Part shown: positions 2,269-8,747 of the stretch, in pieces
How positions within the stretch are numbered: position 1 is the first letter of the stretch
How the letters are laid out: each line of letters opens with the position of its first letter
Source of the DNA: Bacteroidales bacterium UBA1256
Lineage (GTDB): Bacteria; Bacteroidota; Bacteroidia; Bacteroidales; Paludibacteraceae
Direction of reading: 5' to 3'
NCBI GenBank assembly: GCA_002308195.1
Contig: DBVU01000057.1
Location: 1 to 11,074 of the forward strand
Length of the DNA: 11,074 bases
Made by a program: the position numbers and the translations under genes
The notes under the pieces: model-generated
Databases searched by the model: none
Told to the model about the DNA's origin: nothing
What the model saw: only the letters and a program-made list of their open reading frames with translations

Positions 2269-2703
2269 TCACAGTATCAATACCAAAATTGGTATCGGAA
2301 TAAATGTATCGAACGTATACAGAACAGTTCCGTACGTATTAGGTCCCTGATAAACATGCCCGTTAGTGATGGTGTACATCTTTGTTCCGTAGGTATTAGC
2401 TCCTTGGTAGATGTGCAATCCATCCCACGTATAAATCTTTTGCCCATACGTATTTGGTCCCTGATAAACATGCTCTCCATCCCAGGTGAGCAGTTTGGTT
2501 CCGTAGGTATTTGCGCCCTGATAGACATGTTTTCCGTCCCAGGTGTAAAGTTTCGTGCCGTAAGTGTTACCGCCTTGGTACAGATGTTCTCCGTCCCAAG
2601 TGTAGAGTTTGGTACCATAGGTGTTCGGACCTTGGTAGAAGTGTTGTGCTGACATAGTAATACAAGAGAATATTAGACAAAGAAGTAAGCCGATTTTTCT
2701 CAT
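2269..2703 (-). CDS. Secreted protein made of six 19-residue YQG-NTYG repeats, function unknown
   Basis: The protein has 144 residues. Residues 1-20 are a signal peptide (basic start, hydrophobic core, SAQ end) without a lipobox cysteine, so it is probably released to the periplasm. Residues 21-134 are six back-to-back copies of a 19-residue unit with consensus HxYQGxNTYGTKLYTWDGE; only the last two copies deviate at their ends. The final 10 residues (IPIPILVLIL) are entirely hydrophobic. The Y-x-G ... G ... DG-x-x-Y-x-G rhythm recalls MORN repeats but each unit is about four residues shorter than a MORN unit, so I describe it as MORN-like without assigning it to that family. Each unit probably forms a beta hairpin. 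It lies 13 bases after the DUF4270-like gene and is the last gene of that minus-strand unit. No known function recognised. Confidence 0.82.
   Translation of the reverse strand: MRKIGLLLCLIFSCITMSAQHFYQGPNTYGTKLYTWDGEHLYQGGNTYGTKLYTWDGKHVYQGANTYGTKLLTWDGEHVYQGPNTYGQKIYTWDGLHIYQGANTYGTKMYTITNGHVYQGPNTYGTVLYTFDTFIPIPILVLIL
2302..2643 (-). repeat. Six in-frame 57-bp tandem repeats within the secreted repeat protein
   Basis: Six consecutive 57-base units encode the 19-residue repeats. Unit 1 (from 2643) and unit 2 share 16 of 19 amino acids, yet eight of the matching codons differ only at the third base (for example CAC/CAT, GGT/GGC, TAT/TAC, CTC/CTT). The protein repeat is therefore conserved while the DNA has diverged, which argues against a recent expansion. 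Confidence 0.9.
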
Positions 2704-5213: not shown

Positions 5214-5245
5214 TTTGCGTATGTCAGAAATTTGTTGTACTTTTG
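5214..5245 (+). promoter_or_regulatory. Bacteroidota-type promoter for the nucleotidase-domain/lipoprotein/radical SAM operon
   Basis: TTTG (5214-5217) is followed after 20 bases by TACTTTTG (5238-5245), a match to -33 TTTG / -7 TAnnTTTG. Initiation would be near 5252, leaving a leader of only about 15 bases before the ATG at 5267. A perfect 17-base palindrome, CTTTTGCG-G-CGCAAAAG (5240-5256), overlaps the -7 box and start point; it may be an operator, though CGCAAA-like sequence after the -7 box is common in this phylum. Confidence 0.65.
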
Positions 5246-5266
5246 CGGCGCAAAAGTTTGGTGCAC

Positions 5267-5998
5267 ATGAAAAGAGTCGTTTTCTTCTTGTTGGTGTCGC
5301 TTGCTTTGATGGCTTGCCATCGCGCCGTACGCATAACGGGCGTAACGACCGAAGCGATTCCCGTAGATGCTTCTTGCGACCCTATCGCCGACAACGACTA
5401 TACCAACTATCTGCAGCCTACCAAACAGGCTTTGGCGCGCGAGATGGATGTGCAGATTGGCTTTGCGCCTGACATCCTCTGGGTGGCCAAACCCGAATGC
5501 CCGATGCTCAACTGGGCGAGCGATGCCTTGTGGGAAGCCGCCAAACGCGTTTGTCCCGAGCCTGTGGATATGGCGGTGGTCAATATCGGTGGCATGCGTT
5601 GCGACTGGTTGCCCGGACCTATCACGGTTGGCCATATCTACGAACTGATGCCCTTTGACAACCATTTGGTAGTGCTCACACTCTCCGGAGCGGATATTCT
5701 CGACCTCTGTACGGGATTTGCCGAGCGAGGTGGAGAAGGTGTCGCGGGACTGAGAATGACTGCCGTGGATGGACGATTGGCACAAGTTTTGATAGGAGAT
5801 AAAGTGATTGATGCCAAACGCAACTATCGCGTCGCTACGAGCGATTATTTGTCCGGAGGAGCCGACCAGATGGATGCGTTGACGCGTTATTCCAACTATT
5901 GGGATAGCGAATTGTTGATACGCGATGTCTATCTTGACATAGTCAAGGAACAGGATACGCTTCGCGCCAAGGTGGACGGAAGAATGAATTTATTGTAG
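5267..5998 (+). CDS. Lipoprotein consisting of a stand-alone 5'-nucleotidase C-terminal domain
   Basis: I start at the ATG at 5267 (243 residues), because the TTG at 5243 lies inside the promoter. Residues 1-17 are a lipoprotein signal peptide with lipobox LMAC (Cys17). The rest matches the C-terminal, substrate-binding domain of UshA-type 5'-nucleotidases: NIGGMR (106-111) near the nucleotide-binding arginine, ITVGHIYELMPFDN (119-132) with the aromatic base-stacking region, and SDYLSGGAD (192-200). The N-terminal metallophosphatase domain, which carries the two-metal catalytic centre, is absent. In other Bacteroidota the two halves may be encoded by neighbouring genes; here no metallophosphatase follows. 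Alone it could bind nucleotides or work with a partner encoded elsewhere. It is first in an operon with the small lipoprotein and radical SAM enzyme, 12 bases upstream of the former. Confidence 0.88.
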   Translation: MKRVVFFLLVSLALMACHRAVRITGVTTEAIPVDASCDPIADNDYTNYLQPTKQALAREMDVQIGFAPDILWVAKPECPMLNWASDALWEAAKRVCPEPVDMAVVNIGGMRCDWLPGPITVGHIYELMPFDNHLVVLTLSGADILDLCTGFAERGGEGVAGLRMTAVDGRLAQVLIGDKVIDAKRNYRVATSDYLSGGADQMDALTRYSNYWDSELLIRDVYLDIVKEQDTLRAKVDGRMNLL

Positions 5999-6010: not shown

Positions 6011-6298
6011 ATGAAAAAACTATTGGTAAAAATCAATGTATTGCTTGGCATAGCTAGCATGGCTCTGGCTGGTTGTCATAGCCAAAAGGCAGCTACAAAG
6101 ACTGAGACGGAAAGTGCAGATCAGCCTAAGCAAGAGGAAGTGGCTGAAGATCCTAAGGTAATCTGTATGTACGGCGTTCCCGCGTCGCTGCAGGTGGACT
6201 CAACGGCTACTCAGGCTCAGCAAGAGGAAGAAAAAGATCCTCCTGTTCGCCCGATGCTGAAATATGGTGTGCCTAACCCAAGACCAATGGTAAGATGA
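6011..6298 (+). CDS. Small lipoprotein with two YGVP motifs, probable substrate of the adjacent radical SAM enzyme
   Basis: The protein has 95 residues. The signal peptide MKKLLVKINVLLGIASMALAGC ends in lipobox LAGC with Cys22 as the lipidated residue. After that comes a low-complexity, Glu/Gln/Lys/Ala-rich spacer, then ICMYGVPASL (51-60, with Cys52), a second acidic spacer, and LKYGVPNPRPMVR at the very C terminus. The repeated YGVP motif stands out against the low-complexity background. From memory it matches the (C)MYGVP element of the Bacteroidota rSAM/lipoprotein system (substrate family TIGR04134, enzyme family TIGR04133), whose usual members are longer with a beta-sandwich domain following YGVP; that domain is missing here. 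The TGA overlaps the ATG of the radical SAM gene in an ATGA, implying translational coupling and balanced production. Substrate role is inferred. Confidence 0.85.
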   Translation: MKKLLVKINVLLGIASMALAGCHSQKAATKTETESADQPKQEEVAEDPKVICMYGVPASLQVDSTATQAQQEEEKDPPVRPMLKYGVPNPRPMVR

Positions 6299-7365
6299 AA
6301 TTTCGTCTAAAGTTAGCTTTGTGGTTAGAGCGTTGGCGTCGGCAGAATCTGAAGACGCTCCATCCGCTGCAACAGTTGTTCTGGGAAAGTACGTTGCGTT
6401 GCAACGTGCATTGCCTCCATTGCGGTAGCGATTGCGTCGCTTCTGTCACGCAACCGGATATGCCCGCCGAGGATTTTCTCCGTGTCATTGATACGGAAGT
6501 AACACCGCACGTCAATCCTCATCAGATCATGGTCATCATCTCCGGAGGTGAACCACTGATGCGCAAAGATTTGGCCGAAGTGGGCGCAGCATTGAAACAG
6601 CGCGGCTATCCGTGGGGAATGGTTACCAATGGTTTGGCGCTGACCGAGAAACGTTTCCGCGAATTGAGAAAAGCGGGCCTACGTTCTATCACGGTCTCGC
6701 TCGATGGATTGGAGGAAGATCATGTTTGGCTTCGCCAACATCCGTTGGCTTTCGAAGGCGCTTGCCGTGCTATCGGTCTCTGCGCAGCAGAGAAAGGACT
6801 GACTTGGGATGTGGTGACATGTGCCAACCAACGCAATATTGACCATCTGCCGGCTATTCGTGATATGCTGTGGAGTATGGGCGTGCGCGATTGGCGTGTC
6901 TTCGGTATCGATCCAATGGGTCGCGCGGCTACCAATCCTGAATTGCTGCTCAACGATGATCAATTCCGCTATTTGATGGATTTCATCGTTGCTGAGCGCG
7001 AAGCAGGTCGCCATGTCAGCTATTCGTGCGAAGGATATCTGGGAACGTACGAAGGCCGTGTCCGCGACCATTTGTATCAGTGTGCTGCGGGTATCAGCGT
7101 TGCCTCTATTCTGATTGACGGTAGCATTTCCGCTTGTACGAGCGTGCGTGGCAAATATTACCAAGGTAATATCTACAAAGATTCATTCTGGCGCGTATGG
7201 GAAGAAGAGTTCAAACCTTACCGTAATCGCGAATGGATGCACAAAATGGAACCGTGCAAAGATTGCAAGGCATTCGCTTTCTGCGAAGGAAATGGCATGC
7301 ATTTGCGCCGAGAAGATGGCAGCTTGATGCTTTGCCACCTGCAACGATTAGGACAAAAAAAGTAA
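6295..7365 (+). CDS. Radical SAM/SPASM enzyme of the rSAM/lipoprotein system
   Basis: The protein has 356 residues. The SAM-binding [4Fe-4S] motif is C36-x3-C40-x2-C43 (CNVHCLHC), and SGGEP (83-87) is the usual SAM-binding segment of the beta2 strand. The C-terminal region is SPASM-like: C245, C263, C281 (GSISAC gives the G-x4-C element), C321-x2-C324-x5-C330, and C347. The usual cysteine three residues after C330 is Gly334 (CEGNG), so the pattern departs from the textbook seven-cysteine SPASM layout; other members of this enzyme family, as I recall, share CEGNGMHLR. Such domains bind auxiliary Fe-S clusters and act on ribosomal peptides or proteins. The start overlaps the lipoprotein stop by 4 bases, naming the substrate candidate. 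It is cytoplasmic by its lack of signal or membrane segments, so modification would precede export. The reaction is unknown. Confidence 0.93.
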   Translation: MKFRLKLALWLERWRRQNLKTLHPLQQLFWESTLRCNVHCLHCGSDCVASVTQPDMPAEDFLRVIDTEVTPHVNPHQIMVIISGGEPLMRKDLAEVGAALKQRGYPWGMVTNGLALTEKRFRELRKAGLRSITVSLDGLEEDHVWLRQHPLAFEGACRAIGLCAAEKGLTWDVVTCANQRNIDHLPAIRDMLWSMGVRDWRVFGIDPMGRAATNPELLLNDDQFRYLMDFIVAEREAGRHVSYSCEGYLGTYEGRVRDHLYQCAAGISVASILIDGSISACTSVRGKYYQGNIYKDSFWRVWEEEFKPYRNREWMHKMEPCKDCKAFAFCEGNGMHLRREDGSLMLCHLQRLGQKK

Positions 7366-7370
7366 ATAGC

Positions 7371-8747
7371 CTAAGGAAGATATTTTAGGCACAGATTTTC
7401 ATCGAGGTAGTAGATTTTTTCTGCTGCCTCGAATTTTTCACACCCTATCGCTTTGGTTGAGTCGATGAGCGGACAATCGATTTGTGCCAGATGTAGCACC
7501 GAATGGAAAATTCCGTCAGTCGAGAAGCGTTGCGTGCGATGGGCTTGCAGTTGTCGCAATAATGGGCGATGACGATAGCGATAGTTCGGATTGGTCCAAA
7601 TCATCATCGGGACGTGCAATTCGCTGTAATTGTCCGTTAGATGGATATTGTCGCTGCCGATATATACCAAAACAGCAGGCTGATGCGTTACGCGCAGCGA
7701 ATCAGTCAGTTGGCGCAACAAGTACGGAGTCTGTGCAAATGAAATACTGTCGCGTCCGCCTTGCGTAGCCATCACTATCAGATGGCGTTGCAACGGTTGA
7801 CTCATTGCCTCGCGGAATGGCGTCAAAAGTGCCGTGTCCGGTTGGAATGGCAGATACGAAAGATACGAACAATCGTCTGCGATGCGCATCAAGAAATGGT
7901 CGTGGTAGCCGTAATTGCTGAGCCAAGCGGAATAGTAACCGGCCTCGTTGAAAGCGCGAATAAACCCTTTCTCTACAAAGAAAGGCAGAGGATCGGTTGG
8001 TGTGGCACGCGAGAAAAGCAATGGCACGGCTACGCCGCTGACAGGACAAGTGGTATAGACTGAGTCAAAATGGATAGCCAACGAATCTTGGTAGTCTAAT
8101 TCTTGCCACTGAGCATACGAAGTCTCGCCAAGGATGATAATCATAGTCTCGTCCGCTTTGCTCTTGTTAGGCGAGATATCGTACGAGTAATTGCGCTGTT
8201 CGGGCAAGGTGCGTTCTACGTGGATCGCAAATGCAGCCAAACTCTGGAGTTGCGACAAGAAACTCGTAGGACAGACGTGCATCGGACTAATGTAGAAAAT
8301 AGCTACCAAAGCTGCAAAAATAGGTAAGCGCCAACGCAAAGGTGCTATATGTTTTCGTTCTACGAAATAGTGAGCTACTACATAGAATCCGACCCAAAGA
8401 ATGAGTGTAGTAGGGATAATCCAGAAATAGTGCATTACCATCGACCACAAAACCTCGGGCGGCGTTTTGAACCACATATAGAGATAAAGCATCGATGTGG
8501 TGGAACCGCGCAAAAAGAGATGGAACATCTCGAAGATGGAGAATGCAAATCCCAAGGAAATCATGTAGAGATACGCTCGGCGATGGAAGATGCACAAACC
8601 TGCGCCGTACAAAGCAAGCGTAGTGAAGATATACAACAAACGGTCGCCAAAAGAGGATACATCGCTTGCCAAACATACTATCAATATATTTGGCAGCAAT
8701 GCAAAAAGCAGTAATGCTGCAAATACTATGATTTCTTTGGTTTTCAT
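7371..8747 (-). CDS. Phosphoethanolamine-transferase-like membrane protein with degenerate metal site
   Basis: The protein has 458 residues with the EptA/MCR-type layout. Residues 1-160 hold about five membrane segments (roughly 5-27, 35-54, 58-79, 103-127, 140-156); the rest is a periplasmic sulfatase-fold domain. LGETSY (206-211) gives Glu208, equivalent to a metal ligand of EptA/MCR-1. The nucleophile segment CPVSGVAVPLLFS (234-246) aligns with CGT-T-A-S-PCMFS of EptA and puts Ser237 in place of the catalytic threonine. The rest of the site is eroded: the SDHGES motif reads GSDNIH (364-369), the histidine-bearing loop before it reads MATQGGRDS (326-334), and the downstream LHG-P histidine segment is deleted. 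It is last in the operon: its ATG overlaps the LD-carboxypeptidase stop by 4 bases. It could be a transferase with altered chemistry or a pseudoenzyme; family membership is firm. Confidence 0.82.
   Translation of the reverse strand: MKTKEIIVFAALLLFALLPNILIVCLASDVSSFGDRLLYIFTTLALYGAGLCIFHRRAYLYMISLGFAFSIFEMFHLFLRGSTTSMLYLYMWFKTPPEVLWSMVMHYFWIIPTTLILWVGFYVVAHYFVERKHIAPLRWRLPIFAALVAIFYISPMHVCPTSFLSQLQSLAAFAIHVERTLPEQRNYSYDISPNKSKADETMIIILGETSYAQWQELDYQDSLAIHFDSVYTTCPVSGVAVPLLFSRATPTDPLPFFVEKGFIRAFNEAGYYSAWLSNYGYHDHFLMRIADDCSYLSYLPFQPDTALLTPFREAMSQPLQRHLIVMATQGGRDSISFAQTPYLLRQLTDSLRVTHQPAVLVYIGSDNIHLTDNYSELHVPMMIWTNPNYRYRHRPLLRQLQAHRTQRFSTDGIFHSVLHLAQIDCPLIDSTKAIGCEKFEAAEKIYYLDENLCLKYLP

What the first reader, a model, noticed from the sequence alone, without database searches (positions are those of the whole stretch)
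6011..7365. Radical SAM enzyme coupled to a minimal lipoprotein carrying a duplicated YGVP motif
The lipoprotein is almost all low-complexity spacer except for two YGVP elements (residues 54-57 and 85-88, the second close to the C terminus), and it overlaps the radical SAM/SPASM gene by 4 bases. The known rSAM/lipoprotein pairs (TIGR04133/TIGR04134, from memory) usually carry one YGVP followed by a folded domain. Here the folded domain is missing and the motif is duplicated, which points to YGVP itself as the modified element and offers a very simple substrate. The chemistry is unknown; Tyr, Pro, or Cys52 beside the first motif are candidate sites.
Basis: partly seen in the sequence, partly recalled or inferred. 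Interest (0 to 1): 0.8.

Follow-up and report, generated by a model that had tools for sequence, protein, structure and literature searches.

The report
Radical-SAM enzyme with YGVP lipoprotein partner
A rumen bacterium makes a tiny membrane-anchored protein whose main conserved parts are its signal peptide and two short Tyr-Gly-Val-Pro tags; the enzyme gene next to it resembles enzymes that cut a piece out of a protein backbone at Tyr-Gly, so the tags are probably where a rare chemical change is made, which still has to be tested.

Summary
Window 6011-6298 encodes a 95-aa lipoprotein with YGVP at residues 54-57 and 85-88, overlapping by ATGA a radical SAM/SPASM gene (6295-7365) that passes the TIGR04133 cut-off (516.6 vs 425 bits). 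It does not match TIGR04134. It is not an oddity: of 118 YGxP lipoproteins near such enzymes, 59 are short, 54 carry a TIGR04134-like domain, 5 are other long ones. In 120 homologues of the short type, Tyr and Gly of both motifs are 99-100% conserved, 44 of 52 spacer residues are under 30%, Cys52 is 23%.

New lead: the tree puts the enzyme on the side of the PlpX "splicease" family (98/95), which excises tyramine from X-Tyr-Gly. A PlpX-family enzyme in Nostoc sits beside a Nif11 peptide ending ALYGLPPELF, the same YGxP motif. I propose that TIGR04133 enzymes are lipoprotein spliceases making alpha-keto-beta-amino residues at X-Tyr-Gly. Motif-as-target is well supported; the exact chemistry is inferred (about 50%): the enzyme is far below the PlpX-family cut-off, lacks PlpY and has a different SPASM cysteine set. 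The main splicease papers could not be read.

The parts
6011..6298 (+). short lipoprotein, 95 aa, putative substrate
   Evidence: ORF; no TIGR04134 or Pfam match; coil outside the signal helix in AF2; 120 homologues analysed
6011..6076 (+). signal peptide up to lipobox Cys22; Asn9 (6035-6037) almost invariant
   Evidence: Asn9 98% in 120 homologues, Asn 9-16 residues before Cys in 111 of 111 with a lipobox found
6170..6181 (+). first YGVP (residues 54-57), preceded by Met53
   Evidence: Tyr 100%, Gly 99%, Val 86%, Pro 78% in 120 homologues
6263..6274 (+). second YGVP (residues 85-88), preceded by Lys84
   Evidence: Tyr 99%, Gly 99%, Val 71%, Pro 98% in 120 homologues
6295..6298 (+). ATGA overlap of the two genes
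   Evidence: same +3 end position in 21 YGxP lipoproteins
6295..7365 (+). TIGR04133 radical SAM/SPASM enzyme, 356 aa
6400..6423 (+). radical SAM cluster motif C36-x3-C40-x2-C43
   Evidence: invariant in the alignment of 31; Pfam PF04055
7081..7335 (+). SPASM region with six conserved Cys (263, 281, 321, 324, 330, 347)
   Evidence: PF13186; conserved in 29 TIGR04133 rows, while the seventh SPASM Cys of the PlpX-family enzyme is absent

Best explanation
The pair is a substrate-enzyme cassette. The TIGR04133 enzyme acts in the cytoplasm, before or during export, on the unfolded lipoprotein and modifies each X-Tyr-Gly-x-Pro element (here Met53-Tyr54-Gly55 and Lys84-Tyr85-Gly86). [quoted passage not shown] The protein is then exported and lipidated at Cys22, carrying two backbone ketoamides on a floppy tether, possibly as electrophilic bait for proteases. 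Shown: gene pair, enzyme family, motif constraint, co-inheritance of TIGR04133 with TIGR04134. Supported: the enzyme lies on the PlpX side of the tree and the same YGxP motif occurs beside a PlpX-family enzyme. Inferred: tyramine excision, its timing, the biological use.
For: Tyr and Gly at 99-100% in 120 homologues while 44 of 52 spacer positions are under 30%; codons of 47 YGVP copies vary, so the constraint is on the protein. YGxP in 92 of 119 loci with a lipoprotein-like ORF within 130 nt of the enzyme; 95-fold over background in these ORFs, motif-less ones included. All 28 genomes with TIGR04134 over its cut-off are among the 51 of 198 with TIGR04133. Tree: TIGR04133 with PlpX and relatives against NirJ, PqqE, AhbD-like, TIGR04053 and TIGR04347 98/95, 97% of 200 bootstrap trees; with MftC among the outgroups 99/97. 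Shared residues G44, S45, T175, L192, W200, G247, R257. Nostoc TIGR04103 enzyme (853 bits, cut-off 725) beside a Nif11 peptide ending ALYGLPPELF and a 71-aa PlpY-sized protein. PlpXY acts on XYG, naturally MYG and LYG, without the RiPP leader, and both FtsZ tags that were accepted contain YGLP (PMC10533398 passages). The residue before Tyr in the short lipoproteins is K 197, L 53, M 45, V 2. The third residue may be Gly or Pro, which speaks against chemistry on its side chain.
Against: The window enzyme scores 114.5 bits on TIGR04103 (cut-off 725), a near tie with NirJ2 112.8 and AhbD 111.7; the divergent L171 ranks TIGR04103 tenth. Identity to the Nostoc enzyme is 28%. The TIGR04133 stem is long (2.0) and its sister is unresolved. 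No PlpY-like gene follows the enzyme; the next gene is on the other strand. One SPASM Cys is missing and C47, C176, C245 are new invariants. 15 of 119 adjacent lipoprotein-like ORFs have no YG at all, five of them resembling the TIGR04134 domain by eye, and 26 loci have no such ORF. Several relatives on the PlpX side (L188, L190-L195) showed no convincing XYG partner, and the L186 homologue of the L187 partner lacks the motif.
Confidence: 0.5

Rival explanations
1. The enzyme modifies Tyr-Gly of each YGxP, but by another radical reaction, for example a crosslink or oxidation at Tyr, or chemistry at the Gly alpha carbon or at Pro, not tyramine excision.
For: Same conservation. Nearest solved folds are enzymes of other peptide chemistries: SuiB, 5WHY (sactipeptide), anSMEcpe, PqqE. 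SPASM cysteines differ from the PlpX-family enzyme, with new invariant C47, C176, C245, H336. HMM scores alone do not single out PlpX.
Against: Tree side and shared residues; the same YGxP motif beside a PlpX-family enzyme. A crosslink to the third residue cannot be general, as it can be Gly or Pro; Cys52 is not conserved.
Confidence: 0.3
2. YGxP is a docking or sorting element: the enzyme binds it, or another protein does, and the chemical change lies elsewhere or on another molecule.
For: The signal peptide is conserved too: Asn9 98%, Gly13 99%, Ser16 96%, so more than one element is constrained. 26 of 145 loci lack an adjacent lipoprotein-like ORF.
Against: No other residue of the mature short protein reaches the conservation of Tyr-Gly; next is Asp63 at 91%. 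In 8 of 14 genomes whose enzyme has no YGxP lipoprotein within 2.5 kb, one is found at another place. One to five copies per protein fit repeated target sites better than one docking site.
Confidence: 0.15
3. The two YGVP are chance in a low-complexity protein and the gene pairing means nothing.
For: None beyond the low complexity of the spacers.
Against: 2 of 200,000 shuffles; conservation; recurrence in 92 of 119 adjacent lipoprotein-like ORFs.
Confidence: 0.01

Closest known systems
TIGR04133 rSAM_w_lipo with TIGR04134 lipo_with_rSAM (NCBIfam hypothetical equivalogs)
   Same: Enzyme passes TIGR04133; a YGxP lipoprotein lies just upstream
   Different: The lipoprotein here has no TIGR04134 match and two motifs; none of the 20 members of alignment A2 matches TIGR04134 at E 0.01
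PlpX-type spliceases of spliceotide RiPPs (TIGR04103; that PlpX is TIGR04103 is recalled)
   Same: Radical SAM/SPASM enzyme on the same side of the tree; X-Tyr-Gly target, YGxP in the Nostoc precursor
   Different: Far below the TIGR04103 cut-off, no Nif11 or NHLP leader, no PlpY, one SPASM Cys fewer; substrate is a secreted lipoprotein
TIGR03913 GDL-motif peptide (DUF1843) maturases
   Same: Sister of PlpX in the tree (100/99 and 100/100); LYG and PYG near the start of some DUF1843 peptides
   Different: Substrate is a cytosolic 50-70 aa peptide without signal; one of the two L200 peptides has no PYG near its start; reaction not known to me
Anaerobic sulfatase-maturating enzymes (anSME)
   Different: Recalled: Cys or Ser to formylglycine in an enzyme active site; here the partner has no catalytic domain

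Membership tests
TIGR04133 rSAM_w_lipo | score over the curated cut-off of 425 bits | tested here: met
   516.6 bits
TIGR04134 lipo_with_rSAM | score over 39.8 bits with the folded domain | tested here: not met
   no match at E up to 1; no domain in the AF2 model
PlpX spliceases (TIGR04103) | score over the curated cut-off of 725 bits | tested here: not met
   114.5 bits
PlpX spliceases (TIGR04103) | X-Tyr-Gly in the substrate | tested here: met
   MYGVP and KYGVP; conserved in 120 homologues
PlpX spliceases (TIGR04103) | PlpY-like small partner next to the enzyme | tested here: not met
   next gene 7371-8747 is on the minus strand, a 458-aa sulfatase-domain protein; a partner elsewhere in the genome cannot be excluded (no genome held)
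PlpX spliceases (TIGR04103) | Nif11 or NHLP leader on the substrate | tested here: not met
   no such match among NCBIfam hits of the lipoprotein
PlpX spliceases (TIGR04103) | SPASM cysteine set as in the PlpX-family enzyme | tested here: not met
   six of seven SPASM Cys; second Cys of CX3C absent
PlpX spliceases (TIGR04103) | common clade with PlpX | tested here: inconclusive
   same side as PlpX with 98/95, but sister unresolved, few outgroup families, and the other rows of that side were gathered by TIGR04103 similarity
PlpX spliceases (TIGR04103) | tyramine excision | not testable with these tools
   needs mass spectrometry
RiPP precursors | removal of a leader to release a core peptide | not testable with these tools
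   only a lipobox is seen; nothing shows that a core is released

The most novel reading that the evidence does not exclude
TIGR04133 enzymes, found in 51 of 198 sampled Bacteroidales genomes, are lipoprotein spliceases: they install one to five backbone alpha-keto-beta-amino residues in exported, lipid-anchored tethers, mostly with Lys, Leu or Met side chains at the reactive position in the short type, giving membrane-bound multi-headed electrophiles. The almost invariant Asn of the signal peptide may help the enzyme tell its substrates from other lipoproteins before export.
Probability: 0.42. Interest if true: 0.85.

Novelty: new variant of a known kind. Interest (0 to 1): 0.62.

Why it matters
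TIGR04133 and TIGR04134 are hypothetical equivalogs in NCBIfam, and searches of the held library found no paper with these names or with YGVP and radical SAM together. The data turn them into a cheap, sharp test: one enzyme, one 95-aa unfolded substrate, two sites, a predicted loss of 135.07 Da each. If right, a backbone-editing reaction known from RiPPs would be a regular modification of lipoproteins in gut and rumen Bacteroidales. The short unfolded substrate would also suit structural and labelling work.

Tried and rejected
Cys52 as modified site: same residue in 23% of 120 homologues, rejected. Crosslink to the side chain of the third residue: it can be Gly (YGGP in L058, L067, L111, L115) or Pro, rejected as a general rule. 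YGxP as the Bacteroidetes surface-export signal (recalled, next to Cys): distance from Cys to the first Tyr runs from 1 to 75 residues in short and 85 in other long ones (a few start or lipobox calls are wrong), rejected. PG1828 family: 23.4 bits, cut-off 50, residues 1-50 only, not pursued. Conserved wider operon: the 5'-nucleotidase-C lipoprotein is near the enzyme in 5 of 80 loci. HMM ranking as proof of kinship to PlpX: near ties, so trees were built. AhbD and PqqE outgroups from 80 Bacteroidota genomes each: one locus only, replaced by named plasmid records. A known protease-inhibitor domain in the KYGYP protein of L189: no meaningful Pfam or PDB sequence match.

Counts and drops. The 145-locus set is the window, the 80 loci (80 kept of 145 relatives), and TIGR04133 loci with tblastn E of 1e-30 or better; duplicate views L081-L086 and L117-L146 and non-TIGR04133 loci were left out. 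A stricter first regex found a YGxP lipoprotein in 84 of 143 loci, the looser one in 106 of 145 within 2.5 kb; 118 proteins from 102 loci end within 1.5 kb. Lipoprotein detection is my heuristic and holds some false starts (e.g. L033, L110, L113). The background rate (47 YGxP in 374,612 residues) uses six-frame open stretches of 150 aa or more, so part is non-coding. The 118 were chosen by having YGxP, so their 128-fold excess is biased; the 95-fold value is not. TIGR04134 matches 62 of 198 genomes at E 0.001, many without TIGR04133; only the 28 over the cut-off are used. Two of the 51 TIGR04133 genomes (G170, G081) have weak matches of 241 and 223 bits. Of 16 genomes searched two (L022, L032) proved on recount to have a YGxP lipoprotein within 2.5 kb, so 8 of 14 is given; that the second place is far from the enzyme was checked only within about 1.5 kb. 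The best 120 of 282 homologues were analysed. The class model for TIGR04134-like was built here from 17 hits. L157, L167, L172 and L173 in the short class (mature 95-100 aa) may hold a small domain, so 59 is an upper value. L094, L197 and L201 gave no enzyme row; L177, L178 and L208 were left out of the second tree.

Papers: passages only of PMC10533398, PMC11002830, PMC8326336, PMC10373908, PMC11117315, PMC9505594, PMC9484694, PMC12710340, PMC9415263. Not held and not read: Morinaka 2018, Scott 2022, Richter 2024. Scott 2022 names peptides and proteins in its title and may already treat lipoproteins.

Full report
OBSERVATION. The window holds a 95-aa lipoprotein (6011-6298) and a 356-aa radical SAM/SPASM enzyme (6295-7365) that overlap by ATGA. 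In 200,000 shuffles of the mature region two or more YGxP arose twice. AlphaFold2 predicts a helix at residues 2-20 and coil elsewhere; Pfam (E up to 10) and TIGR04134 (E up to 1) do not match.

PARTNERS. Of 145 TIGR04133 loci, 119 have a lipoprotein-like ORF within 130 nt upstream: 92 with YGxP, 12 with YG only, 15 with neither; 26 loci have no such ORF. In these ORFs, motif-less ones included, YGxP is 95 times as frequent as in background stretches. The 118 YGxP lipoproteins within 1.5 kb are 59 short ones, 54 with a TIGR04134-like domain and 5 other long, charged ones, of which four carry two or three motifs, several as YGSPE or YGPPE. In 21 of the 118 the Tyr follows the lipobox Cys directly. 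L001, the closest relative by enzyme, has a TIGR04134 lipoprotein and a two-motif short one upstream of the same enzyme. In 8 of 14 genomes whose enzyme has no YGxP lipoprotein within 2.5 kb, one was found at another place, so the enzyme may also serve substrates in trans.

CONSERVATION. In the best 120 of 282 homologues of the short lipoprotein, YGxP copies number 1 in 2, 2 in 71, 3 in 36, 4 in 10 and 5 in 1. Tyr54 100%, Gly55 99%, Pro57 78%, Tyr85 99%, Gly86 99%, Pro88 98%; 44 of 52 other residues of positions 27-52 and 58-83 are under 30%, with Asp63 at 91% as the main exception; Cys52 23%. The profile that gathered them contains the motif, so the contrast with the spacers matters more than the absolute values. 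Codons of 47 YGVP copies vary. The residue before Tyr is K 197, L 53, M 45, V 2; in the wider set of 118 it is K 43%, M 14%, E 13%, C 12%, L 9%. Asn9 of the signal peptide is 98%; in the wider set 77% of 93 YGxP lipoproteins have Asn at -22 to -10, against 28% of 71 other lipoprotein-like ORFs.

CO-INHERITANCE. Of 198 Bacteroidales genomes 51 have TIGR04133 at E 1e-60 (47 over the cut-off) and 28 have TIGR04134 over its cut-off; all 28 lie among the 51 (Fisher p 2e-20; related genomes are not independent). In 101 genomes of the family of G001 the short-lipoprotein profile has 10 matches: the 3 with E under 1e-10 are in genomes with TIGR04133, the 7 weak ones in 5 with and 2 without.

WHAT IT WORKS LIKE. 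Seven relatives of TIGR04103 or TIGR03913 rank TIGR04133 third (L184, L185, L186, L191, L198) or fourth (L189, L196) among NCBIfam models. From the TIGR04133 side the ranking is not decisive: TIGR04103 114.5, NirJ2 112.8, AhbD 111.7 bits for the window, TIGR04103 tenth for L171. A maximum-likelihood tree separates TIGR04133, PlpX, GDL and related rows from PqqE, NirJ, AhbD-like, TIGR04053 and TIGR04347 with 98/95, and with MftC added 99/97. Most other rows on the PlpX side were gathered by TIGR04103 similarity, the outgroup families are few, and the sister of TIGR04133 is unresolved. G44, S45, T175, L192, W200, G247 and R257 are shared by that side and rare in the outgroups. PlpXY excises tyramine from X-Tyr-Gly, naturally at MYG and LYG, without need of the RiPP leader (PMC10533398 passages; PMC11002830 passages). 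Products are described as protease inhibitors (PMC11117315 passage; PMC10373908 passage). The two FtsZ tags that PlpXY accepted contain YGLP, while most tags there were not accepted. A Nostoc TIGR04103 enzyme (853 bits) sits beside a Nif11 peptide ending ALYGLPPELF and a 71-aa protein of PlpY size. That PlpX itself is TIGR04103 is recalled. Other neighbours with XYG on this side: KYGYP five times and KYGYPG once in L189, MYG in a 35-aa ORF beside L198, LYGTP in L187, LYG and PYG in DUF1843 peptides. Against: L188 and L190-L195 showed no convincing partner, and the L186 homologue of the L187 partner lacks the motif.

MECHANISM. Shown: pair, family, motif constraint, co-inheritance. [quoted passage not shown] Use is unknown; electrophilic bait for proteases is a guess. 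Short members have few acidic residues after Cys (mean 0.14 at +2 to +6, against 0.53 in other lipoprotein-like ORFs); by the surface-export signal that I recall for Bacteroidetes, surface display should not be assumed.

MEMBERSHIP AND NOVELTY. The enzyme is TIGR04133. The lipoprotein is not TIGR04134. The enzyme is not a PlpX-family member by cut-off, partner or SPASM cysteines; it resembles one in substrate motif and tree side. Searches of the held library found no paper with TIGR04133, TIGR04134 or YGVP plus radical SAM; listings for splicease terms show none on lipoproteins by title, but the key splicease papers are not held, so earlier treatment cannot be excluded. I rate it a new variant of a known kind.

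Noticed in passing
L189 2955-3599 (Bacteroidales genome G151): A 214-aa protein directly after a TIGR03913/TIGR04103-like enzyme ends in a repeat tail with KYGYP six times, each but the last followed by Cys; it looks like a multi-site substrate.
   Followed up: partly
L198, 189 to 82 nt before the enzyme start (Agathobacter rectalis plasmid record): A 35-aa ORF with MYG near its end precedes a radical SAM enzyme of the PlpX side, a possible minimal peptide precursor.
   Followed up: no
window 6035-6037 and homologues: Asn9 in the signal peptide is almost invariant (98% of 120), unusual for a signal peptide; it may be a recognition element for the enzyme.
   Followed up: partly
L149, L171-L173, L176 and others: In 21 of 118 YGxP lipoproteins the motif follows the lipobox Cys directly (CYGxP), so a change at X would touch the lipid-bearing Cys.
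   Followed up: no
L102, L104, L110, L113: Long charged lipoproteins (coiled-coil-like by eye) with two or three YGxP, often YGSPE, beside TIGR04133 enzymes.
   Followed up: no
L007, L032, L040, L049, L054: Adjacent lipoproteins that resemble the TIGR04134 domain by eye but have no YG motif; possible non-substrate paralogues.
   Followed up: no
L042, L074, L078: Two or three YGxP lipoproteins in tandem upstream of one enzyme.
   Followed up: no
window 5243-5998: Lipoprotein-like ORF with only the C-terminal domain of 5'-nucleotidases (PF02872), just upstream of the pair; similar gene near the enzyme in 5 of 80 loci.
   Followed up: partly
window 2269-2703, minus strand: 144-aa repeat protein (YQGxNTYG..YTWDG) matching PF21786 Bflower_3, E 1.4e-29.
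   Followed up: no
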